From positions 1-64,000 of the forward strand of contig NZ_JACZFR010000052.1 of assembly GCF_014904815.1 (NCBI RefSeq): a stretch of DNA of 64,000 nt. Direction: 5' to 3'. Below the pieces are notes generated by a model. It did not search any database. It was given only the letters and a program-made list of their open reading frames with translations, and had not been told where the DNA came from. Positions 37,041-46,709 of this stretch are shown here, piece by piece. The position numbers were made by a program, and so were the translations under genes. How positions within the stretch are numbered: the first letter of the stretch is position 1; the number at the start of each line of letters is the position of its first letter. This DNA comes from Microbulbifer taiwanensis (GTDB lineage: Bacteria > Pseudomonadota > Gammaproteobacteria > Pseudomonadales > Cellvibrionaceae).

Positions 37041-37128
37041 GGTGGGGTGGCTGAGTGGTCGAAAGCGGCGGTCTTGAAAACCGTTGACTGTAACAGGTCC
37101 CAGGGTTCGAATCCCTGCCCCACCGCCA
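37041..37128 (+). tRNA. tRNA-Ser (anticodon TGA), island integration site
   Basis: Acceptor arms GGTGGGG and CCCCACC pair, with encoded CCA. The anticodon loop CTTGAAA gives TGA (37075-37077). A long variable arm (TTGACTGTAACAGGTCC region) and T arm CAGGGTTCGAATCCCTG fit a serine tRNA. Its last 14 bases plus one more are repeated at 46319-46333, marking the integration core. Confidence 0.97.
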
Positions 37129-37129
37129 T
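37115..37129. other. attL of the genomic island
   Basis: CTGCCCCACCGCCAT is identical to the copy at 46319-46333. It overlaps the tRNA-Ser 3' end, so integration leaves the tRNA whole. Confidence 0.85.
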
Positions 37130-37138
37130 TTCTGAACG

Positions 37139-37167
37139 TAAGGCCCTGATTTTTCAGGGCTTTTTTA
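37139..37167 (+). terminator. Island-supplied terminator for tRNA-Ser
   Basis: AGGCCCTG, ATTTTT, CAGGGCT is followed by TTTTTTATG, 11 bp past the tRNA. The original tRNA terminator has been displaced beyond attR (46336-46368). Confidence 0.85.
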
Positions 37168-37180
37168 TGCCTGCTGTGTT

Positions 37181-37237
37181 TGCTCCCCCATCTGTTCCCC
37201 CACCACTGTAAAACTCCTTGCCAGTATGTGGGGGAAC
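37181..37237. other. Left arm-type integrase sites
   Basis: TGCTCCCCCAT (37181), TGTTCCCCCAC (37193) and inverted GTGGGGGAAC (37228). The same 11-mer occurs three times beside the integrase start at the other island end. Confidence 0.6.
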
Positions 37238-37679
37238 GAGTAGCTGGAATTTCACAGTGGGGGTGTAGGCTGCCGGCGCCGTATGGCCAGCCCGACCGCA
37301 GAAAGCACCGCGGGGGACCCGGCATTGCGGCACAGTGCCTTCCTCCCATGGACGCTTCAGCTCGCCCCGGCACACGCGTCTGTGCTCAGTACCCATATTG
37401 TGCCAGGGGCGTAGGAACTGAATTCCCGGGAGAAAAAGCAGACCGCAAGCCGACCGCCCAGGGACACCCGGACGCCTCGTCTGTGCTGCATTTCGTCCGG
37501 ACTGCTGGAGAAGTGCCGAGGGCACCCCTCGGTCGCAGAGGAAAGCCGTAACTGGTCGGTGGACCCGTTCAGCGCACTAGCGGCAATCTCCCCCAGCCTT
37601 CCCACAATTGGACTGAGCCCCCAAGCTCCCCCGTGGATTTCTTGGGCCTACGATCGCGCCCTCTTCTCGCTTATTTACT

Positions 37680-38297
37680 ATGGGTGCCTGCTTTGCTGTA
37701 ATGGCGAAAAAATCAGACCAAGGGCTTACAAGGATGAAAGCGACTCATAAATTCGCAGAAGATAAATACGAAACATTGAGAGACAGCGCGCGGAACCTTG
37801 CGGCAACGACACTGCCGCGCATCATGTCGAACGGTAAGGGGCAGGCTATAAGCTTGCGTGAGTCTGTCCGGCTCGCCGGAATAGACCTCCACACACGGCT
37901 GAAAGCGAAGAGCTGGGACGATTCACCATTCAGGCAAGTGACTTGGGATTGGTCGGATTTGGTTTCAGATTATGTCCGGCTCCACCCAAAGCGCTTCGAG
38001 CTTGCCGTCTGGTACCGCGACCTGTTCCTGTGCGGCCTTTCCATTGGCAGACCCACATGGAGCGACAATAAATTGCGACTGGACTTTATCGAAGCCAGCC
38101 CAGAAGAGACGCCGCTTACCGGCTTGATTACCGATATCACAATCGCAGCCGCCGAAGCCTACGCGGATGTGATAGGGGTGGTACAGTTGCGAATTATGAA
38201 CCCGATCAATGACAAGGTGCGGGCGCACTACTTGGCAAAGGGGCGCGGCTTTACCTATGACCGGCGGGGCAATTACTGCTTCAAGGATCTGGCATGA
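37680..38297 (+). CDS. Hypothetical island cargo protein with GNAT-like C-terminus
   Basis: 205 residues, or fewer if translation starts at an internal ATG (37701 or 37734). No good ribosome-binding site decides this. I do not recognise the family firmly. The N-terminal half is charged ('KATHKFAEDKYETLRDSARN'). The C-terminal half ('ITIAAAEAYADVIGVVQL', 'NPINDKVRAHYLAKGRGFTY') resembles the last strands of GNAT acetyltransferases, where an asparagine and a Y-x-x-x-G-F motif close the acetyl-CoA fold. It overlaps the next gene by four bases. Located next to attL, it is in the usual cargo position of a satellite. The 510 bp before it hold only hairpins, such as CCGAGGG-CAC-CCCTCGG at 37516. Confidence 0.7.
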   Translation: MGACFAVMAKKSDQGLTRMKATHKFAEDKYETLRDSARNLAATTLPRIMSNGKGQAISLRESVRLAGIDLHTRLKAKSWDDSPFRQVTWDWSDLVSDYVRLHPKRFELAVWYRDLFLCGLSIGRPTWSDNKLRLDFIEASPEETPLTGLITDITIAAAEAYADVIGVVQLRIMNPINDKVRAHYLAKGRGFTYDRRGNYCFKDLA

Positions 38298-38536
38298 AAC
38301 AGCATCGACCGAAACCCGGCACCAAAGAGTTTGATGATTGGCTCCTCGAGCGCGCCGAGGCCAGAAGTAAAGAGCTATTCAAGAATGGCCCGGCTGATTT
38401 CGATGAGCGCGGAGCAATCTCCGGAAGCGAGGAGTCTCTAACGTCCACCGACGCCGAGGCATTCCCGGACGAGTTGGAAGAGTACCGCCCGGAGGAGAGA
38501 AAGCCGCGGCTAGTTCCGAAGAAGAAAAAAGACTGA
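38294..38536 (+). CDS. Small hypothetical protein, coupled to upstream cargo gene
   Basis: 80 residues with an ATGA overlap onto the preceding gene. It starts MKQHRPKPGTKEFDDWLLER, has an acidic centre (DEELEEY-like) and a lysine-rich tail 'RLVPKKKKD'. It is probably largely disordered apart from one helix. No family is recognised. Coupling suggests a partner of the 205-residue protein, for example an inhibitor or adaptor, but this is inference. Confidence 0.65.
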   Translation: MKQHRPKPGTKEFDDWLLERAEARSKELFKNGPADFDERGAISGSEESLTSTDAEAFPDELEEYRPEERKPRLVPKKKKD

Positions 38537-38759
38537 GCCTGTCGCATCCTCGACGCTTCCGTGTACCCTCCCGGCATCGGCCGCCCTCGCCTGCACGGCC
38601 GCCAAAATGCGCCGGCACTAACGCCGTCCCAGATTGATATTCGAGCCGAGCGGAACGCCGCCGCCGAGGTGGCGCCCGGCCACAGAGGCTAGACCGCAAT
38701 CACGCGGTGCGGCGAGCCAAACCTGTGGATACTTTCAGGCATGGATTTTAATTCAGTCT

Positions 38760-38915
38760 TTAAATAATCCCACATGTGAATAAATCCACATGTGTGGTAA
38801 TTTAATAGAATTTTGCACGAATAACGAAATGTTATACAGATTCTAAGCGTTAGAATCCAGGGATTTTATTTCGTTATCGGCTATTTCTGCCGATCTATCC
38901 GGACCTATAGATAGC
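38760..38915. other. AT-rich palindrome cluster in island
   Basis: Contains two CACATGTG palindromes (38771, 38787), GATTCTAA-GCG-TTAGAATC (38839-38857) nested inside ATAACGAAAT...ATTTCGTTAT (38821-38877), and CTATC...GATAG (38895-38914). It looks like a control region or second origin. No gene lies in 38537-39542. Confidence 0.5.
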
Positions 38916-39010
38916 CGCCTAATATTCTTATATTTACCTCAATTTCTACACAGCGCTGTACTTCCATACAGCATTCCTAAATTTTTGCAGTAACGAGAAA
39001 ATCGAAAACC

Positions 39011-39345
39011 GTAGCGGGTGTGCTACTTGGCTCGGTGGATAACAGCGGCTCGCGTTGGCCCGTGGTCCTGCGATTTCAGTCGGAGCGGCCCGCGGCCGGC
39101 AGCTCCCGGAGCGGGTTTTGGGGGTCGGGCGCGGTCACCGCTAACGGAGGGGGGCCCGGCCGCCCAGCCGCGGTCAGCGTCGCCACGGGGGGTGCCCGCC
39201 GTCAGGCCGCGGGGCCGCCTGGTTCCCGGCAATGTGGCGATCCCGGCGCGAAGCCGGGTCGCCGTCGGAGCGATGGCCCCCCCCCGGGTGGTCGGCAGCG
39301 TGCCCACAGTGGTGCGTCGTCGGGAGCCCTCCCCATCCGGGTAAA
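39011..39345. other. Very GC-rich non-coding block, candidate structured RNA
   Basis: About 335 bp of visibly over 70 % GC sits between AT-rich flanks. Hairpins include GTAGC-GGGTGT-GCTAC at the left end (39011-39026) and GGCGA-T-CCCGGC-GCGAA-GCCGGG-TCGCC (39236-39263). Open frames on both strands overlap and have proline/glycine/arginine bias typical of non-coding GC-rich DNA. Function is unknown. Confidence 0.35.
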
Positions 39346-39542
39346 TTTCGCTCCAAATTGCTAAAAACTATTAAGGCCAGGTACTTAATGTGTTAAGGAA
39401 ACTTAACTTTTGTGCGAGGACCGGTCGGTCACAATGAAAACTCCGGCCGGGGTGGGGGGCTCCGCAGTACCTTTTCGCGCCAGAAAGTGATATTTTGACG
39501 CCAAAATCTATGAAAACGCGCCAAAATTAAGCATAACGGCGC

Positions 39543-39908
39543 TTAAGTTAATGATCTTCTCGACGCGATAGTTTCTTCGAGCCGCTTAACTGCTTTCTGG
39601 TAGCGGCGGTTGGCTTCTTCCACACGGGGGCGCCCCAGGGCTTGGGAATTTGTGTAGCCGTTAGCCTCTTCTCGCTCGAGCGCGCTCTGAAAGACGTCAT
39701 TGGCGTCGCCAATGGCAATAAGCAAGTCGTGAGTCTGATTGTCTAGGACTAGGCCACCTTCGACAGCGATGATAGCTTCCTCTACAGCTCCATACTCTCG
39801 AGCAGCGTTCAATATAGCAGTGACTCTCTGGCGCTCCGCATTGATTCCTTGAAGGAGGAGGTCTGCATAAAGAGCGGGGCTCTGTTGCTTCAGCGCTCTA
39901 ATGTCCAT
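39543..39908 (-). CDS. Small helical island protein, phage scaffold/protease-tail-like motif
   Basis: 121 residues, mostly helical. The N-terminal 'LKQQSPALYADLLLQGI' followed by 'NAERQRVTAILNAAREYG' resembles the scaffold-like tails of phage S49 prohead proteases (P-x-L...G...ER-x-R...I). The next block, 'GGLVLDNQTHDLLIAIGDAN', and the C-terminal 'RYQKAVKRLEETIASRR' also fit a helical assembly protein. It overlaps the 63-residue gene upstream by 11 bases, and that protein shares the same motif. A role in altering helper-phage capsid assembly is my inference. Confidence 0.7.
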   Translation of the reverse strand: MDIRALKQQSPALYADLLLQGINAERQRVTAILNAAREYGAVEEAIIAVEGGLVLDNQTHDLLIAIGDANDVFQSALEREEANGYTNSQALGRPRVEEANRRYQKAVKRLEETIASRRSLT

Positions 39909-40089
39909 AGGGGAGGTCCTTCTCTGTATTGGTTAGCTGTCGATAAATATCAAGTTTTTCTGCCGGGCTAGCAGCAGCTGCGGCGCCTTGAATGAGGCGG
40001 GTTCTTTCCGTAGCGATGCCGATGCCGCGGATTGCCTCGGCCAACTCAGGGTTTTCGGCTCTGAATTTATCAAGCTCGTCATGGTTCAT
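39898..40089 (-). CDS. Small island protein sharing the ER-x-R scaffold-like motif
   Basis: 63 residues with GAGGATG before the ATG. 'FRAENPELAEAIRGIGI' followed by 'ATERTRLIQGAAAA' aligns with the start of the 121-residue product (both have P-x-L, G-I and ER-x-R spaced alike). The tail 'SPAEKLDIYRQLTNTEKD' is helical. The pair may be a duplicated small assembly protein. No firm family assignment. Confidence 0.65.
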   Translation of the reverse strand: MNHDELDKFRAENPELAEAIRGIGIATERTRLIQGAAAAASPAEKLDIYRQLTNTEKDLPYGH

Positions 40090-40267
40090 GGGTGCATCCT
40101 CTTAGATGGGTAGTGCCCCGCTCACAATAGGGCGGGGTTTCGGCGAAGCTGCCGAATCCACAGTGTAGTCGCAGGTTATTCGCGTGCGCCGCCGGTCTCG
40201 CGGCAAGTCTGGGCCGCTATGAACCAGGTTCGGCGCCGGCAGGTTTAGTGACCGGCACCATTCAATG

Positions 40268-41113
40268 TTATCCGCGGGGGTCTATGCGCTGGCGGAGCGG
40301 CTCAGGCCGGGCGGCGGGCTTCGATAGTTCGCCATCCGCAGGAACCGCCATCCCTGTCCGCTCATCGAAAGCGAGCTTGCGGGGTGCCGGTGCCCTCAAA
40401 TCGGCCTGCTGGTGGACCGCCCCGGGTACTGGCGCGGCCGGCGCCTGCTGCGATTGGTCCCCGTCGGCCGTGGTTGCAGGCTGCTCTTCGGTGGTCCTGC
40501 TAGCCATACCGCGGGCTGTCTCGGCCAGTATGGCGCTGCCCGCGCTTAGGGACTTGCCGTGTGGCCCCGGCGACGGGATCAAGCCCAAGAGCTGCCGCCT
40601 CAGGTGCATATCTTCAGTAGCGCTCATTACCGCCTGCACCCAGGTTGCAGAGATCGCCCGGTCACCCACAGGCACAACGGAGCGTTTCAAGCTTTCGCGC
40701 AAGCTGTGCCTATCGTCAGTGGATAGCAAGCCCACAATATCGGGAGTATCGAGGCCGATAGAAGCGGGGGTAAGAGCATCCTCGCGGTCCGCCAGCGTTC
40801 TGGCCAGTTGGTCGATCAGTTTGACGGCTTTATTCGTGAGCTTGTTGTACTCCTCGAGGGCTTGGTCGGCTGCGTCGGCGATGCCCTCTAACAGCGTCTT
40901 GCGGCTTTTGGCACGGTCTGCAGCGGCCTCGGCGGCCAGGCGCTCCTGCTCCAGCTTCTCGGCCCGCTCCAGTATGGTGAGTTTCTCACGCAGTTGTGCG
41001 CGCTTGCTGGCTATCTGGTCGATATCCGAAAGGTCCGGGGCCGGCGCCAGAGCCTGTAACTCCACTTCGGTCTCGGCTTTTCGCTGCCGAATTTCGGTTA
41101 ACTTGTCGTCCAT
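40268..41113 (-). CDS. Coiled-coil island protein of unknown function
   Basis: 281 residues from ATG 41113, which has GGAGG eight bases upstream. Residues 1-110 are a heptad-rich coiled coil ('QLREKLTILERAEKLEQERL', 'AAEAAADRAKSRKTLLEG'). The middle is mixed ('GLDTPDIVGLLSTDDRHSLR'), and the last 90 residues are Pro/Ala/Gln-rich and probably disordered. It lies just after the iteron region in the likely replication/packaging strand. It could be a scaffold-type or DNA-binding protein, with no evidence to decide. Confidence 0.75.
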   Translation of the reverse strand: MDDKLTEIRQRKAETEVELQALAPAPDLSDIDQIASKRAQLREKLTILERAEKLEQERLAAEAAADRAKSRKTLLEGIADAADQALEEYNKLTNKAVKLIDQLARTLADREDALTPASIGLDTPDIVGLLSTDDRHSLRESLKRSVVPVGDRAISATWVQAVMSATEDMHLRRQLLGLIPSPGPHGKSLSAGSAILAETARGMASRTTEEQPATTADGDQSQQAPAAPVPGAVHQQADLRAPAPRKLAFDERTGMAVPADGELSKPAARPEPLRQRIDPRG

Positions 41114-41197
41114 TGATTTGCGCCTCCGTAGCGCTAGTGTTGTGGTCACAATTGACCGTTTTGAAAACCTCATCCCCCCACTGGGAAATTCACAGGG

Positions 41198-41520
41198 GAG
41201 CAGTTGCAGCGAATGCAGCAGTTTTTCTTAATATGTTGGATACTTTGTATATGCACATACATATTTCTCTGTACGTTACTTCCTATAGAAAAACTGCTGC
41301 ATCTGCTGCGTAGATAATCCATATCTGTCTGATACTGTCTAAAGCGTTCCAGGATTACGCAGCAGTTACGCAGCAAAACGGCCAAAATATGCAGCAGTTG
41401 CAGCAAGGCTCTGTGGAAAAACGCGCCTTGAAAATTTTCAGGGATTTTAAAAATTCCCAAAATTTTCGATTTTTGGAGACGCAGCAGTTTTTGCAGCAGT
41501 TTTGCAGCATACCTGCTGCG
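41198..41520. other. Iteron array, putative replication origin of the island
   Basis: GCAGCAGTT occurs at 41215, 41359, 41391, 41481 and 41493. An inverted AACTGCTGC lies at 41292, with several shorter GCAGCA/CTGCTGC copies. An AT-rich tract (41430-41475: GAAAATTTTCAGGG, TTTTAAAAATTCCCAAAATT) lies among them. It directly follows the helicase gene's 3' end. Layout is that of an iteron origin with an unwinding element. Confidence 0.6.
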
Positions 41521-41526
41521 CGTTTC

Positions 41527-43026
41527 TCACCGGCTCGGCCCAGGAAATGGGGCCACATTTCCGACAGCTCCCCCCGTGGATTCCGTCACCCCCACGCCGT
41601 AAAAGCCACGCATCCGTTTTCCATCTACCAGCACCGATGCAGCCCGCCGCGCACCCTTCCAGCGCAGCGCATCAGCCAGGGCGGTCAGCATGCGCCGCCG
41701 CGGCATTTGCTGGTAGCCGTTCCCAGCTGCCCACAGGCGGTATGCCCCCCAGAGCGTCTCGTCGCTGGCTCTGTGATCGGGTCCGCAGATCAATACCGTA
41801 TCGATAAACTCAGCCATGCTGCCGTCGGGAGCCGCCAGGGTGGCCAGTTCATCGAGGGAAGATTGCGGCAGCTCGAATCGGCCACGCGCGGCAAGGCGTT
41901 TCCAGCCTTCGACCGCCCACGCGGCAATGCCCGGGAGTTCCCCCTGCAGGCGCTGCACCAGCGTGGGATCCTCGCGGCCGATAAAACTTTGATCGAATAC
42001 GAGCGGCACGAAGCGGTGGGCCGCGGCGGCGCTGTCATCCCACAGGGTGGGGGCCGAGTTGCACGCGAAAAACAGTTTCGTCGGAATCGGAGCGCTCAGG
42101 GCGTGTTGCTGGTAGAGCTGTGGAATATCCACGCTTTCCCCGGCGGTGATTCGTTTGAATAGGCCGAGGACGGCGCGCGCATTGCGAGGCGCTGGACCTA
42201 CCGCATCTGAATCAATGCCGACGTGCGCACGGGCAAGGCTCGACAGAACTTTAGGGTTATCCAGTTCCCCCAGTGTGAAAGCCGCAGCGCCAGGCGCCCC
42301 ACCGTGCAGCGCTTCGAGAATGGCCAGTAAAACCCCTTTGCCTGCGCGCTGCGGACCGATCAGAAGAACGGCTTTGTGTAGCCCGAGGCTCGCCCGGCAA
42401 AAGGTCCAACCGAAAATCTCCTGTGCCAGCGCGATACGTGCGGGCTCGTTGGAGAATATTTCGGCGACCCACGCCGAAAACCGAGGCGCGATCGCAGCGG
42501 GATCATAGTTCACGGATAGGGTGCGGGTATTCCGATCCGCGGGGCAAATCGGGCGTAAAGAACCGGTACTTAATTCCAGGGCGCCATTCAAGAAAAACGC
42601 CACAGGTTCCGTAGGGTCTGGGGTTCCGATCCGTGGGGCTTGATCCTTCAGCACTTGCAAAGTGCCGCTCAGTAGATTGTGCGTTACCGCTTTCGGGCCG
42701 CTGGAAAGTGCACGGGCCATAACCGCCCGCAAGTCGCTATCTGGTACCGGCTCCCAGGCGCACCCGTTGAACCAATGAAGCGCACCGCCCAGAATTCCAA
42801 GGCGATTCCCAAACGTGCCGGAAAGCAGTTGTAGCGCATTTGTTAAATGGTCGCCGCTATTGTGGGTGGGCGCGGGGGCGACTTCCGGAAAAGGTAGTAG
42901 CGGGAGTGGTTCACCAAGTACGATGGGGGCAGGCGATGATTCCACACTGGGGGACTGCTGCTGGACGGAATAAACCGTCTGCTGTCGGGCCACGGCGTTT
43001 GAAATTGTGCGGCGTAGGTATTCCAT
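41527..43026 (-). CDS. P4-type SF3 helicase / primase C-terminal protein
   Basis: 499 residues. A D5_N-like region (about 60-200, 'LHWFNGCAWEPVPDSDLRAV') precedes the superfamily 3 helicase. Walker A is 'LIGPQRAGKGVLLAILEAL' (about 222-240). 'LARAHVGIDSDAVG' fits Walker B and 'PTKLFFACNSAPTLWDDSAA' motif C, followed by an arginine-rich 'AAHRFVPLVF'. P4 family proteins unwind the satellite origin. Unlike P4 alpha, primase is separate here, encoded just upstream with one base between stop and start. The C-terminal 'QMPRRRMLTALADALRWKGA' looks like an origin-binding winged helix. Confidence 0.88.
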   Translation of the reverse strand: MEYLRRTISNAVARQQTVYSVQQQSPSVESSPAPIVLGEPLPLLPFPEVAPAPTHNSGDHLTNALQLLSGTFGNRLGILGGALHWFNGCAWEPVPDSDLRAVMARALSSGPKAVTHNLLSGTLQVLKDQAPRIGTPDPTEPVAFFLNGALELSTGSLRPICPADRNTRTLSVNYDPAAIAPRFSAWVAEIFSNEPARIALAQEIFGWTFCRASLGLHKAVLLIGPQRAGKGVLLAILEALHGGAPGAAAFTLGELDNPKVLSSLARAHVGIDSDAVGPAPRNARAVLGLFKRITAGESVDIPQLYQQHALSAPIPTKLFFACNSAPTLWDDSAAAAHRFVPLVFDQSFIGREDPTLVQRLQGELPGIAAWAVEGWKRLAARGRFELPQSSLDELATLAAPDGSMAEFIDTVLICGPDHRASDETLWGAYRLWAAGNGYQQMPRRRMLTALADALRWKGARRAASVLVDGKRMRGFYGVGVTESTGGAVGNVAPFPGPSR

Positions 43027-43027
43027 A

Positions 43028-43903
43028 TCAGCGATTCCACTTGTCCCGCACCAGGGCCGATTGCCACATCAGCCGGTGCACAGCCTCGCAGTTGCGGCCG
43101 GTCCAGAACGCAAGGTGTTGGGCAAGAGCGGCGTCTGCGCTGCTCCGGTCGTATATATCCCCTGTAGCGCTGGGATAGGCGCGGGCCAGTGCGTCTTCGT
43201 TGGCTGTCCACAGATCCCAGAAAGTCGCCCGGCCACCGAATACGGCACCGCCACTCGTAGCGCTGCAGGCTTTTTCGATGATTTCCTCATCCGTCAGGGG
43301 TGTCCATGCCGGGTCTGGCTCGGTTGTCCATTCGGCGCCGTTGGGCGCGGAGTCGTGGTCTAGATGTAGATAAGTTTCAACCAGCCAGTCGAGGGCCTCA
43401 GGGGGCGCGAGCGTCGAAATATCCCCGCTGGCGTTGGTGCCCGTCAGAGCTACGAAGCGGCCGCCTGTATAAAATTCCACGTTGCCGCGGCGATTGCGAT
43501 GGGGCCGACTGGGGCGCCCAGTCCCGATAATGTGGATACCGGTTCCACTGGTGCTGACTTCGTAATAGCAGCCAGGAAAGCGAGCGATAATCTCGCCAGC
43601 TTCTTCAGATAGTGCGCCGGTCTGCGGGTCGCGGCAGTGGTCCAGGTCGATCAGAAAACGACCGTCATTTTCGTAGAAAAACAGCCCCACGCCGTACTCA
43701 GGACCTAACGCGCGGGCAACCGTCGCAGCCGTCGCGTAATCTGTGCAGTGCTCGTCCGGGGAGCCCTGCCAGTCGCCGCCCTTGAGAAAGGGCGTCCCGG
43801 TGCGGGGGTCGATCGGTATTTTCTTGACCTTAGGTGTGCCGGGGACACGTCTCCACACTAGGTGGCGGTTGGGTGTTGACGCCTCGGATGTGGTATGATT
43901 CAT
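43028..43903 (-). CDS. Prim-pol (AEP) DNA primase/polymerase
   Basis: 291 residues starting at ATG 43903 behind AGGTG. The prim-pol core is present: 'PEYGVGLFFYENDGRFLIDL' then DHC gives the D-x-D metal site (about 86-88), 'YYEVSTSGTGIHIIGTGR' the s-x-H motif, and 'NVEFYTGGRFVALTG' the third motif. The C-terminal part ('DEEIIEKACS...FWDLW', 'SADAALAQHLAFWTGRNCEA') is the primase-associated helical domain. It primes satellite replication with the adjacent helicase, and the stop and start codons are one base apart. Confidence 0.9.
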   Translation of the reverse strand: MNHTTSEASTPNRHLVWRRVPGTPKVKKIPIDPRTGTPFLKGGDWQGSPDEHCTDYATAATVARALGPEYGVGLFFYENDGRFLIDLDHCRDPQTGALSEEAGEIIARFPGCYYEVSTSGTGIHIIGTGRPSRPHRNRRGNVEFYTGGRFVALTGTNASGDISTLAPPEALDWLVETYLHLDHDSAPNGAEWTTEPDPAWTPLTDEEIIEKACSATSGGAVFGGRATFWDLWTANEDALARAYPSATGDIYDRSSADAALAQHLAFWTGRNCEAVHRLMWQSALVRDKWNR

Positions 43904-43949
43904 GGGCACCTGCTTCTTGCTTCGGATCGGGTGACAAATTCCATCGCTC

Positions 43950-43980
43950 AAGCCCCTGCAGTCTCGCCACTCAGGGGCTT
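43950..43980. terminator. Hairpin between alpA-like gene and prim-pol
   Basis: AAGCCCCTG and CAGGGGCTT form a stem followed on the plus strand by TTTTCTTTT. On the minus strand, the direction of the operon, it would act as an attenuator. In P4, immunity RNA arises in the equivalent leader, which is a loose analogy. Confidence 0.55.
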
Positions 43981-43986
43981 TTTCTT

Positions 43987-44190
43987 TTATGCGCGGCGTT
44001 GGGAAAGCTTGCCCCGTATCCAGGCGTCAATTTCACGACTGTCCCAGCCAACGGCACGAGGCCCAAGCTTCACATTTTTGGGAAAGTCGCCTTTGCTCAT
44101 TAGCTCGTAAACAGCGGACCGGGGAAGCCCTGTTTTGCTCTGCACTTCCGGCAGGCGAAGGATTCGGGGAGAGATTGTTTCAGTAGTCAC
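43987..44190 (-). CDS. alpA: AlpA-family excisionase/regulator
   Basis: 67 residues with a MerR-like winged HTH: 'LRLPEVQSKTGLPRSAVYEL' followed by 'GDFPKNVKLGPRAVGWDSRE' and 'IDAWIRGKL'. AlpA proteins of cryptic prophages switch on integrase/excision and early genes. It is upstream of prim-pol and helicase on the same strand, so it probably governs the replication operon. Confidence 0.88.
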   Translation of the reverse strand: MTTETISPRILRLPEVQSKTGLPRSAVYELMSKGDFPKNVKLGPRAVGWDSREIDAWIRGKLSQRRA

Positions 44191-44309
44191 GGCTAGCTCC
44201 GAGGATTTCCGAGAAAGAACGCTAGCACTATGGTGGGAGGAGCGGCCTCAAACAACGCACGGAGGGGCCTTATTTCGGAAGTTAGGGGCCTTATTTCGGA
44301 AAGGGCGGG

Positions 44310-44828
44310 CTACTGCGACACAGCATCCAAATGCGCGGCAACCAACCCGGAAACTATATTCTCTGCCTGCCTCGGTGTCGGTTTCGGCCCTTCGCCGCAC
44401 CTAGCGAGTGCTCTTCTGACAATTTCAGCCCTGGCCCCCCGTTTATCTAAATCCCCACAATCCCGCACTTCTCTACGTGCGAACTCACGGAACTGATCAT
44501 ACTGCCTCCCTTTCCGTCCACCTTCGGCGCCACATGTGCGCGCGCGCGCGGCACTCGCGTCAATTGAAAGCTGCGTTGCGAGGCGCTCAATTAGCAGACG
44601 GAAATTCCCATTTGGGTTTTCAGGGTCCCGGTGTTTATCTATCTCCTCGACTGCGGACGCCAGCAGAAACGATTGGTTATTAATTAAGACTACGGCCGCG
44701 TGCATATAGCCGCGTATCGTCTCAAACTCCTCAGCCAATCCAGCCTCCTTAATCCGCTCTAATGCAGAATCAGCGTCCAAAGCGACTGAATCAAATTTGA
44801 TTAAAAGCTCTTTTATATTCTCTCTCAC
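44310..44828 (-). CDS. Hypothetical protein coupled to the integrase
   Basis: 172 residues from a GTG that overlaps the integrase stop by four bases (GTGA). The N-terminal half is helical ('LLIKFDSVALDADSALERIK', 'YMHAAVVLINNQSFLLASAV'). The C-terminal half is basic with 'GGRKGRQYDQFREFARREVR' and a helix 'PTPRQAENIVSGLVAAHLDA'. This could bind DNA. No known family is recognised. Coupling suggests an accessory role in recombination or control of it. Confidence 0.7.
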   Translation of the reverse strand: MRENIKELLIKFDSVALDADSALERIKEAGLAEEFETIRGYMHAAVVLINNQSFLLASAVEEIDKHRDPENPNGNFRLLIERLATQLSIDASAARARTCGAEGGRKGRQYDQFREFARREVRDCGDLDKRGARAEIVRRALARCGEGPKPTPRQAENIVSGLVAAHLDAVSQ

Positions 44829-46099
44829 GCCGTTACCTCCCTTGTGTGGAATTCCAAAATTTTTCCTTTCCGGCTAGCCGTTACAAAATCAGCCCATTCC
44901 CGCATTAGCTGCCGCCGCAGTTCCAGCAGATCGCCACGACGGTAGGCCGCTTCCACGTCATCGCCGATGGTATGCGCCAAGGCCATTTCGCAAACATGAT
45001 TCGGCGCTTTGCTACATTCCGCTGCCCAATCCCGAAATGCGGAGCGAAATCCGTGCATGGTGATCACGCTGCCGTTTTCGTCACGCCACCCAATGCTGTC
45101 TTCAGCATGTTTTATTTCGTCCAGGCCTCGAATTTTCATTAGCATGGCCATGTTGGAAAGTGGCCGCCCTGCCCTGGCGCCGGGGAATAAGTAATCACAG
45201 GATTCCACACGGGGGAGGCGCTTTAGTTCAGCTACCGCGGCTGGCGAAAGCGGGACCCGATGGTTCTTGCCGGCTTTCATGCGCTCACCGGGAACCATCC
45301 AGATTTTGCCCTCGAGGTTAATCTCTTTCCACGTAGCCCCAAGCACCTCGGCAGTTCGCAGCGTGGTCAATATCGTCAACCGCACCGCCGCCGCGCTCAG
45401 GTCTTCATGCGTGGCTATCGCGCTCCAGAATTCCGGGGCCTGTTTCCACGGGAGAGCGGCATGGTGGCCGCGGGTGCCCTGCTTCTGCCGGGTCAATAGC
45501 AGCTCCAGGTGCCCACGCCAAGCGGCGACATTCTCGCCCTGGCGCAGTCCCTGTGCCTTCGCGGCGTTCAGGATGATCTCTATTCGGTTTCGCACTCGGC
45601 GCGCGGTTTCCGGCTTGCTATGCCAGATCGGCGTGAGTACGGCGAGAACATCCTCTGTGGTTATCTCGGCGGCCTGCTTCCGTCCGATCACGGGGAAGGC
45701 GAATTTCTCGAGGGTGTTCTCCCACTGCTGGGCATGCTTGGCGCTCTTCCAGCCCGGCCGCTGCGCCTCGATATAGGCGCGAGCCAGCTCCGAAAAGCTC
45801 GGCTGTGTCTTCTCCTTCGATGCCCGCAGCATCGCGGCCCGCTGCGCTCTTCGCTCCTCAACTGGATCAACGCCGTTCAGGATCAGCCCGCGCTGCGCCG
45901 CCGCGGACACACGGGCCTGCTTGAGGCTGACGGCCGGAACAGAGCCAAGGCCCATTTCCCGGCGTTTCCCGTTCAGCTGGTAACGAAAAACCCAACTACG
46001 ACTGCCGTTGGCCTTAACGACCAGGCGCAACCCGTCGCCATCTTCATAGGTACCCGGTGTGGATAAATTTTCGACCTGCTTGGGTTTCAGTTTGGCCAT
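44825..46099 (-). CDS. int: P4-type tyrosine integrase
   Basis: 424 residues. An N-terminal DUF4102-type domain ('GDGLRLVVKANGSRSWVFRY', 'GLGSVPAVSLKQAR') is followed by the SAM-like core domain and the catalytic domain. The catalytic set is intact: R248 (TTLRTAEVLG), H349 and R352 (MHGFRSAFRDWA), H376 (LAHTIGD) and Y386 (AAYRRGD). Start 46099 is used because the proteins of this family begin near MAKLKPKQVE, and the longer frame would run over the TGTTCCCCCAC repeats. It integrates at tRNA-Ser. It sits at the end away from the tRNA and points into the island. Confidence 0.93.
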   Translation of the reverse strand: MAKLKPKQVENLSTPGTYEDGDGLRLVVKANGSRSWVFRYQLNGKRREMGLGSVPAVSLKQARVSAAAQRGLILNGVDPVEERRAQRAAMLRASKEKTQPSFSELARAYIEAQRPGWKSAKHAQQWENTLEKFAFPVIGRKQAAEITTEDVLAVLTPIWHSKPETARRVRNRIEIILNAAKAQGLRQGENVAAWRGHLELLLTRQKQGTRGHHAALPWKQAPEFWSAIATHEDLSAAAVRLTILTTLRTAEVLGATWKEINLEGKIWMVPGERMKAGKNHRVPLSPAAVAELKRLPRVESCDYLFPGARAGRPLSNMAMLMKIRGLDEIKHAEDSIGWRDENGSVITMHGFRSAFRDWAAECSKAPNHVCEMALAHTIGDDVEAAYRRGDLLELRRQLMREWADFVTASRKGKILEFHTREVTA

Positions 46100-46100
46100 C

Positions 46101-46198
46101 TGTTCCCCCACTCCTCCGCTGGTTGGGTTCGCCCCCACTTCTCGGGGTGTTTCTGAATTACTCCGCCTAACTCTCTGTTCCCCCACCTGTTCCCCCAC
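46101..46198. other. Right arm-type integrase sites
   Basis: TGTTCCCCCAC occurs at 46101, 46176 and 46188, just upstream of the integrase ATG. These match the left-end copies, so they likely bind the integrase N-terminal domain and may also repress int. Confidence 0.6.
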
Positions 46199-46318
46199 TT
46201 TGAGTCAGAAACAGGCGGAAGGCCTTAGACGTCCTTGGATTCAAGATAGTCTACAGGCCCCGTGATTGCTTTGCATTGCTGGATTTTGTTGGAACTTACC
46301 AGAAACTAATTTGGAGGA

Positions 46319-46333
46319 CTGCCCCACCGCCAT
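46319..46333. other. attR of the genomic island
   Basis: CTGCCCCACCGCCAT, identical to tRNA-Ser 3'-end positions 37115-37129. It is followed by the displaced native tRNA terminator (ACCGGCC...GCCGGGTTTTTTTT). Confidence 0.85.
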
Positions 46334-46706
46334 ACAAAAAAAACCGGCCTTTTGCCGGGTTTTTTTTTATGGGGGTGGGGGAGGAAGTGGGTGGGGAGCC
46401 CCGTTCGAGCCGGAGGGCGCAGCCCGGAGACCAGCGAGCGCAGCGAAGCTAATCCCTGCCCCAACTGTCATACAAGGAAAGCCGCCTTTATACCGGTTTT
46501 TTTGTATGGCGGTGGGGCAGGATTTGGATGAGAACCCCCGTTCGAGCCGAAGGGCGCAGCCCGGAGACCAGCGAGCGCAGCGAAGCCAATCCCTGCTCCC
46601 GCCGCCATACGAGGAAACCCGGCTTTATGCCGGGTTTCCTCGTATGGCAGTGAGGCAGGTCTGAATGAGAACCCCCGTTCGAGCCAGAGGGCGCAGCTTG
46701 GAGACC
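46319..46706. repeat. Three tandem palindromic repeats derived from the tRNA-Ser 3' end
   Basis: Units start at 46319, 46451 and 46588 (about 132, 137 and 119 bp). Each has a tRNA-end-like arm (for example AATCCCTGCTCCCGCCGCC at 46588), then a terminator-like hairpin. After this comes an inverted copy of the arm (GTATGGCGGTGGGGCAGG at 46504) and a linker containing GTTCGAGCC...GGGCGCAGC and AGCGAGCGCAGCGAAGC. In unit 3 the inner hairpin is perfect (46606-46646). Confidence 0.8.
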
Positions 46707-46709
46707 AAA

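What the first reader, a model, noticed from the sequence alone, without database searches (positions are those of the whole stretch)
37041..46333. P4-like phage satellite or related integrative element in tRNA-Ser(UGA)
A 15-bp duplication of the tRNA 3' end bounds 9.2 kb. The segment holds an integrase, an AlpA regulator, a prim-pol, an SF3 helicase, an iteron array, short scaffold-like genes and a cargo pair, and no virion, terminase or lysis genes. Splitting P4-alpha-type functions into separate prim-pol and helicase genes, with the integrase at the end away from the tRNA, is unlike classic P4. This is the most likely undescribed system in the window.
Basis: partly seen in the sequence, partly recalled or inferred. 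Interest (0 to 1): 0.78.

Follow-up and report, generated by a model that had tools for sequence, protein, structure and literature searches.

The report
Satellite-like island in a serine tRNA
A 9.2-kb stretch of mobile DNA sits in a serine tRNA gene of a bacterium and looks like a small phage parasite with its own integrase, switch protein and replication gene; the replication gene is probably broken, so the odd gene split that drew attention is most likely damage rather than a new design.

Summary
The island is real. An exact 15-bp repeat of the tRNA-Ser(UGA) 3' end (37115-37129, 46319-46333) bounds 9.2 kb; in 20 of 29 congener loci inspected the tRNA is followed directly by the native terminator. 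It encodes an integrase, an integrase-overlapping gene, AlpA, a primase-helicase, an iteron cluster and a left-end gene pair; no virion family was recognised. It is not P4-like: 2 of 7 P4 components found. The 'separate prim-pol and helicase' are two pieces of one NrS-1-type primase-helicase, broken inside one domain; in 86 of 88 related loci the prim-pol lies in one long ORF (2 gave none). The order int / 4-nt-overlapping gene / alpA / primase is that of PICMI satellites, but site and primase family differ. Congeners carry prophages at the same tRNA with related ends, so a prophage remnant is the main rival. The left-end pair is a conserved two-gene unit (42 of 44 copies examined), seen at ends of prophages and AlpA islands. 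The host has a P2-like prophage, a possible helper, but no shared packaging sequence was detected. Best reading: a decayed, satellite-like integrative island.

The parts
37041..37128 (+). tRNA-Ser(UGA), integration target
   Evidence: ARAGORN; Rfam
37115..37129 (+). attL core CTGCCCCACCGCCAT (3' end of the tRNA)
37130..37203 (.). left inner end: terminator-like hairpin and an integrase arm-site-like repeat (TGTTCCCCCAC at 37193); resembles the sequence after the same tRNA in G030, G037, G042
37734..38297 (+). p205: GNAT-like protein (phrog_4350, 7e-07), first gene of the end pair; ORF open from 37680, homologues start at 37734
   Evidence: the GNAT name is by eye, no Pfam match
38294..38536 (+). 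p80: short protein with acidic tail, 4-nt ATGA overlap with p205
38537..39542 (.). about 1 kb without convincing genes; GC-rich block near 39040-39345
   Evidence: (fold z -0.70)
39543..39908 (-). 121-aa protein, unknown
   Evidence: no family at E 0.1
39898..40089 (-). 63-aa protein, unknown
   Evidence: no family at E 0.1
40268..41173 (-). 301-aa protein, predicted long helical hairpin (residues 5-133), no relatives found
41174..41526 (.). AT-rich (43% GC) iteron cluster, 11 copies of [T/C]GCAGCA on both strands: likely replication origin (inferred)
41527..43026 (-). C-terminal piece of the primase-helicase (SF3/D5_N-type helicase)
43028..43903 (-). N-terminal piece of the primase-helicase (NrS-1-type prim-pol and first part of its HBD domain); ORF open from 43951
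43987..44190 (-). AlpA regulator/excisionase
   Evidence: PF05930 1.2e-22
44310..44828 (-). 172-aa integrase-overlapping gene (4-nt GTGA overlap, ribosome site in front); same place as iolg of PICMIs
   Evidence: no other match in 293 genomes
44825..46099 (-). tyrosine integrase (Arm-DNA-bind_3, Phage_int_M, Phage_integrase); ORF open from 46198, start chosen by me
46101..46198 (+). three perfect TGTTCCCCCAC repeats (46101, 46176, 46188), likely integrase arm sites (inferred)
   Evidence: 4 perfect copies in 64 kb, all at the element's two ends
46319..46333 (+). attR core

Best explanation
A 9.2-kb satellite-like integrative island at tRNA-Ser(UGA), of the minimal int / overlapping gene / alpA / primase kind. 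Inferred working: a helper phage raises AlpA, which with the integrase and perhaps the overlapping protein excises the circle at the 15-bp core; the primase-helicase starts at the iterons just beyond its gene; copies are packaged by a helper, the island having no recognised capsid genes; the left-end pair is accessory. In this genome the primase-helicase frame is broken, so integration and excision genes look whole but self-replication is probably impaired: a decayed copy. Shown: site, repeats, gene content, broken frame, recurrence of parts in the genus. Not shown: excision, replication, helper, packaging.
For: Att repeats unique to the locus; native flank directly at the tRNA in 20 of 29 congener loci. 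Integration, switch and replication families and no virion family. int overlaps the next gene by 4 nt with a ribosome site, then alpA, then primase: the PICMI layout of PMC10803314. Iterons next to the replicase. Perfect arm-site repeats only at the two ends. Parallel islands at tRNA-Leu in G042, G014 and G003: int, another gene, AlpA, replicase..., p205. AlpA within 20 kb of a p205 in 7 places, the window included, against about 0.5 expected by random placement. A P2-like prophage (GPO, P2-family capsid, small terminase, GPL, Ogr, baseplate J) lies in the same genome.
Against: No element with the same internal genes was found (172 aa: only itself in 293 genomes; 301 aa: only itself in 96; helicase piece: itself and one distant genome, G077, in 96 and in 390). 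The same site and related ends are used by prophages. No stretch shared with the P2-like prophage: longest exact matches 13 and 14 nt, as in controls; one blastn hit, 68% over 96 nt from the GC-rich block, lies at the far end of that contig, outside the phage genes seen. The 4-nt int overlap is not seen in five tRNA-Leu islands (gaps -56, 82, 82, 117, 117), and a tRNA 3'-end repeat was found for only 1 of those 5 within the stretch held (G014). Of 17 AlpA stretches fetched, 9 hold an integrase found by the search and 5 a p205. No TerS or cos recognised. The replicase is broken.
Confidence: 0.55

Rival explanations
1. A prophage remnant: a tailed phage integrated at tRNA-Ser(UGA) and lost its middle (capsid, tail, lysis), leaving int, AlpA, replication genes and the p205/p80 left end.
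For: Prophage genes follow this tRNA in G003, G009, G044 (tail genes; Pfam-tested in G003, by eye in the other two) and G042 (capsid); completeness was not checked. Integrases 56-59% identical in G004, G006, G007, G014, G037; the G037 one stands at the right end of a prophage with GpA terminase and capsid, on another contig than the tRNA, so its site is inferred from the att core. The window's left end is 87-90% identical, tRNA included, to those of G030, G037, G042. G003, G009 and G044 begin with the same p205/p80 pair. Nearest primase relatives are in tailed phages and viral contigs. Replicase is broken.
Against: The remaining genes are compact and ordered, with both att ends, replicase and likely origin kept; no structural family recognised; the G037 prophage has, by eye, another replicase and its AlpA stands apart from int; the int/overlap/alpA/primase order fits satellites better.
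Confidence: 0.3
2. The split primase-helicase is not damage: the second ORF starts one base after the stop of the first, and both are made by coupled termination and restart, giving a two-subunit replicase. (A reading of the gene, compatible with either origin of the island.)
For: Stop at 43028-43030 and ATG at 43024-43026 are close enough for restart; [quoted passage not shown]
Against: The break lies inside the HBD domain: the first piece holds HBD positions 1-39 of 64, the intact Escherichia phage PDP46 protein 2-63 in one ORF; the best solved chains of this primase type run about 35 residues beyond the break. 86 of 88 related loci have the prim-pol in one ORF of 676-917 aa; the other 2 gave no ORF.
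Confidence: 0.1
3. An integrative plasmid-like element that replicates but moves by other means (transformation, mobilisation), not a phage parasite.
For: Recognised genes are for integration and replication; helper not shown; distant relatives of the helicase piece occur on plasmids (89 records, all under 60% identity).
Against: No relaxase, mating or partition family among the ORFs scanned; replicase and AlpA are of phage/satellite type.
Confidence: 0.08

Closest known systems
PICMI (phage-inducible chromosomal minimalist islands, Vibrionaceae; PMC10803314: abstract, passages and section 10 read)
   Same: Small, direct repeats, no capsid genes, int with a 4-nt-overlapping following gene, then alpA, then primase.
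   Different: PICMIs sit at fis, complete ones were found only in Vibrio, average 6.7 kb in Vibrionaceae, primase with DUF3987/DUF5906; here tRNA-Ser, 9.2 kb, NrS-1-type prim-pol with D5_N helicase, broken; att core shared with prophages. Host not named by any search.
Gram-negative PICI (PMC6092414: abstract and passages read)
   Same: int, alpA, pri-rep and origin; no tail or lysis genes.
   Different: PICIs have unique att sites; here prophages use the same site. No terS or cos recognised.
P4-like satellites (PMC8628076: passages and start of abstract read)
   Same: Tyrosine integrase, AlpA, primase-helicase; iteron origin and size near 10 kb as in P4 (recalled).
   Different: No Psu, Delta, epsilon or PF03288-type alpha found; Sid not testable; primase of another family.
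NrS-1 / phrog_1829 phage primase-polymerases (Escherichia phage PDP46, Shewanella phage SppYZU01)
   Same: 45% (N piece) and 33% (C piece) identity to PDP46, 49% (N piece) to SppYZU01; same domain order.
   Different: In PDP46 it is one intact ORF, in a full phage.
tRNA-Leu AlpA islands of the same genus (L258, L260, L261)
   Same: int, another gene, AlpA, replicase, p205 towards the far end.
   Different: Another tRNA, DUF927 replicase (Pfam-tested in L258, L261), other cargo; p205 is oriented otherwise relative to int; no 4-nt int overlap.

Membership tests
P4-like satellite | At least five of seven components (int, Psu, Delta, Sid, AlpA, epsilon, alpha/PF03288) together (criteria as read in PMC8628076) | tested here: not met
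   Pfam on 19 ORFs of the region: only integrase and AlpA. Sid has no Pfam model and was not tested; even with it the count would be 3.
P4-like satellite | Packaging site shared with a P2-like helper (recalled) | tested here: inconclusive
   P2-like prophage present, longest exact matches 13-14 nt as in controls; other helpers not testable.
PICMI | int, alpA and primase together | tested here: met
   the primase is broken and of another family.
PICMI | Primase with DUF3987 and DUF5906 | tested here: not met
   Window pieces match NrS-1 HBD and D5_N only; the PDP46 relative carries DUF5906.
PICMI | Integration next to fis (called a hallmark in PMC10803314) | tested here: not met
   Site is tRNA-Ser(UGA).
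PICMI | Gene overlapping int by 1, 4 or 13 nt (21 of 35 subfamilies) | tested here: met
   GTGA overlap at 44825-44828; homology to known iolg families not tested.
PICI | Unique att sites | tested here: not met
   Prophage genes directly after the same tRNA-Ser in congeners.
PICI | Helper-induced excision and packaging | not testable with these tools
   Needs cultures.
cfPICI (capsid-forming satellites; features recalled) | Own capsid and terminase genes | tested here: not met
   None recognised.
Prophage (intact) | Capsid, tail, terminase genes | tested here: not met
   None recognised.

The most novel reading that the evidence does not exclude
A lineage of satellites that uses the very tRNA sites and integrase type of the prophages it lives beside and shares with them a conserved end pair (GNAT-like protein plus short acidic protein) that guards occupancy of the tRNA site, for example as an addiction or phage-exclusion unit; with a replicase made as two coupled subunits.
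Probability: 0.12. Interest if true: 0.7.

Novelty: new member of a known kind. Interest (0 to 1): 0.4.

Why it matters
If the satellite reading holds, it brings the int / alpA / primase kind of minimal island to a tRNA site that prophages of the same genus also use, so that satellite and phage would compete for one tRNA. The more useful by-product is the end pair: an unnamed two-gene unit in 26 of 96 genomes searched, up to six copies per genome, at ends of both prophages and AlpA islands.

Tried and rejected
P4-like label: rejected on the component test. Separate prim-pol and helicase as a design: rejected as the most likely reading. Structured RNA in the GC-rich block 39040-39345: fold no better than shuffles, z -0.70, and no Rfam hit there. 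Shared packaging site with the own P2-like prophage: none seen (one search did not cover the first 9 kb of L276, one search did). GpA-type terminase of the G037 prophage in the own genome: no match, without a positive control. Structure of p205 from one sequence: useless, mean pLDDT 35. PDB or Pfam support for p205 as GNAT: none that counts (best PDB E 0.24), so that name is by eye. PADLOC hits of the 301-aa protein are weak (best E 0.007) and to long coiled-coil type proteins. Single-protein viral-contig scans for the helicase piece and the 301-, 205- and 172-aa proteins confirmed no relative. The one genome-contig scan gave 8 distant relatives of the prim-pol. Distant blastn of 38536-41530 against phages: no match. 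The host genus was not named by any search; Microbulbifer is my guess.
Full report
What is there. ARAGORN places tRNA-Ser(UGA) at 37041-37128. The 15-mer CTGCCCCACCGCCAT occurs at 37115-37129 and 46319-46333, and in the whole 4.82-Mb genome only once more, inverted, at 46506-46520. In the same genus 46 of 48 genomes, the own one included, matched the tRNA region. Of the 30 loci held (the window and 29 congeners), by eye 20 congeners show the tRNA followed at once by the native terminator that in the window lies beyond attR; 6, the window among them, show something else; 4 were not caught by the pattern. So this is an insertion. The 137-bp tandem repeat beyond attR is native: similar units follow the tRNA in several empty congeners.

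Genes. From attR inwards, minus strand: integrase (Arm-DNA-bind_3, Phage_int_M, Phage_integrase), a 172-aa protein whose GTG start overlaps the int stop by 4 nt behind a ribosome site, AlpA, then the primase-helicase. Beyond it lies an AT-rich (43% GC) 353-bp stretch with 11 [T/C]GCAGCA, against at most 3 in the other windows sampled, then 301-, 63- and 121-aa proteins without family at useful E-values, about 1 kb with no convincing gene, and on the plus strand next to attL the pair p205/p80. TGTTCCCCCAC occurs perfectly four times in 64 kb, all at the two ends (10 matches with one mismatch allowed, 1.15 expected), and similar repeats stand at the ends of related elements: likely integrase arm sites.

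The split replicase. The two pieces match one PHROG, 1829, at positions 12-274 and 280-757 of 772. Pfam's NrS-1 HBD domain is cut: positions 1-39 of 64 in the first piece, 2-63 in one ORF of Escherichia phage PDP46. PDP46 aligns at 45% with the first piece and 33% with the second. Of 88 loci with a related prim-pol (80 viral, the best of 488; 8 genomic), 86 have it in one ORF of 676-917 aa and 2 gave no ORF; only 2 of the 86 also matched the window's helicase piece, at E 1e-6 or at 1e-3, so the helicase half is divergent or of another clade. The best solved chains of this primase type continue about 35 residues past the break. I read this as a broken gene. A restart at the close-by ATG is possible and kept as a rival. 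A neighbour case, by eye: the tRNA-Leu island of G014 has its DUF927-type replicase in two ORFs (508 and 415 aa) where G003 and G042 have one of 942 aa.

Relatives. The integrase matches 11 of 96 genomes at E 1e-60, with 56-59% identity in G004, G006, G007, G014 and G037. In G037 contig C24 it stands at the right end of a prophage with GpA terminase and a capsid protein, and directly beyond the att core begins a second element with p205: I infer two elements in tandem at one site, though the tRNA itself is on another contig. In G003, G009 and G044 the tRNA is followed by the p205/p80 pair and then phage tail genes (baseplate J Pfam-tested in G003, the others by eye). In G042 another phage type follows the tRNA (Phage_capsid_3); G030 and G037 share its left end, which is also like the window's. 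In G043 the p205 copy at the tRNA is truncated and followed by transposase-like genes. The helicase piece has no relative in 96 or 390 genomes beyond the own one and G077 at 28-31%; the 172- and 301-aa genes have none.

AlpA islands. AlpA occurs in 22 of 48 genus genomes. Of 17 AlpA stretches fetched, 9 hold an integrase found by my search and 5 a p205. In G042, G014 and G003 the order at tRNA-Leu is int, another gene, AlpA, small genes, replicase, other genes, p205. The int overlap is not seen there (gaps -56, 82, 82, 117, 117 in five islands), and only 1 of 5 showed a tRNA 3'-end repeat within the stretch held.

The end pair. p205 relatives occur in 26 of 96 genomes, 62 hits. Five genus copies, the window's included, lie within 1.5 kb of tRNA-Ser(UGA), 0.04 expected; 7 of 57 genus copies, the window's included, lie within 20 kb of an AlpA, about 0.5 expected under random placement, a crude control. 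Of 44 copies examined (of 62, mostly the higher-scoring ones), 42 are followed at once by a short ORF, all but one with an acidic tail, 28 of them with exactly 4 nt overlap; the other 2 are truncated. No Pfam or PDB match supports the GNAT reading, which is by eye. Function unknown; a toxin-antitoxin or exclusion unit is my guess. In 38 of 40 p205 stretches fetched no integrase was found, and in none an AlpA, within about 8 kb, so most copies stand outside recognisable islands.

Known kinds. PICMIs (PMC10803314; abstract, passages and section 10 read) have int, a gene overlapping int by 4 nt that in the prototype is needed for excision, alpA, primase and no capsid genes; integration at fis is called a hallmark and complete PICMIs were found only in Vibrio. 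The window shares the order and the overlap, not the site or the primase. PICIs (PMC6092414; abstract and passages) have unique att sites; here prophages share it. P4-like sets (PMC8628076; passages) need at least five of seven components; two were found. I therefore file it as satellite-like: it may work like a PICMI or PICI, and is a member of none of the three.

Helper. The own genome holds a P2-like prophage on C113 (GPO, P2-family capsid, small terminase, GPL, DUF2586, baseplate J, Ogr). No shared stretch beyond chance was found between it and the island, so a P2/P4-type shared cos with this prophage is not supported.

Verdict. Insertion: near certain. Satellite-like rather than prophage remnant: about 0.55 to 0.3. 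Replicase broken: about 0.9.

Noticed in passing
46319-46707: Three tandem 137-bp units, each starting with a copy of the tRNA-Ser 3' end and a terminator hairpin; related pieces elsewhere in the genome (C78, C103) and similar arrays after the tRNA in congeners.
   Followed up: partly
37734-38536; L184-L223: Conserved two-gene unit (GNAT-like protein, short acidic protein), multi-copy across the genus, at ends of some prophages and islands.
   Followed up: partly
L258, L259, L260, L261: Islands in tRNA-Leu: integrase, another gene (DUF6387 in L261), AlpA, DUF927 replicase (tested in L258, L261), cargo, p205 near the far end; replicase in two ORFs in L260.
   Followed up: partly
L071 16420-17000 (G037 contig C24): Apparent junction of two elements integrated in tandem at the tRNA-Ser core.
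   Followed up: partly
L276-L277 (own genome, C113): P2-like prophage, possible helper.
   Followed up: partly
39040-39345: Very GC-rich block without convincing genes inside the island, flanked by AT-rich DNA; purpose unknown.
   Followed up: partly
G000 C89:31144-31719 (L205): Second p205 relative (49%) in the own genome, away from any integrase seen within about 8 kb.
   Followed up: no
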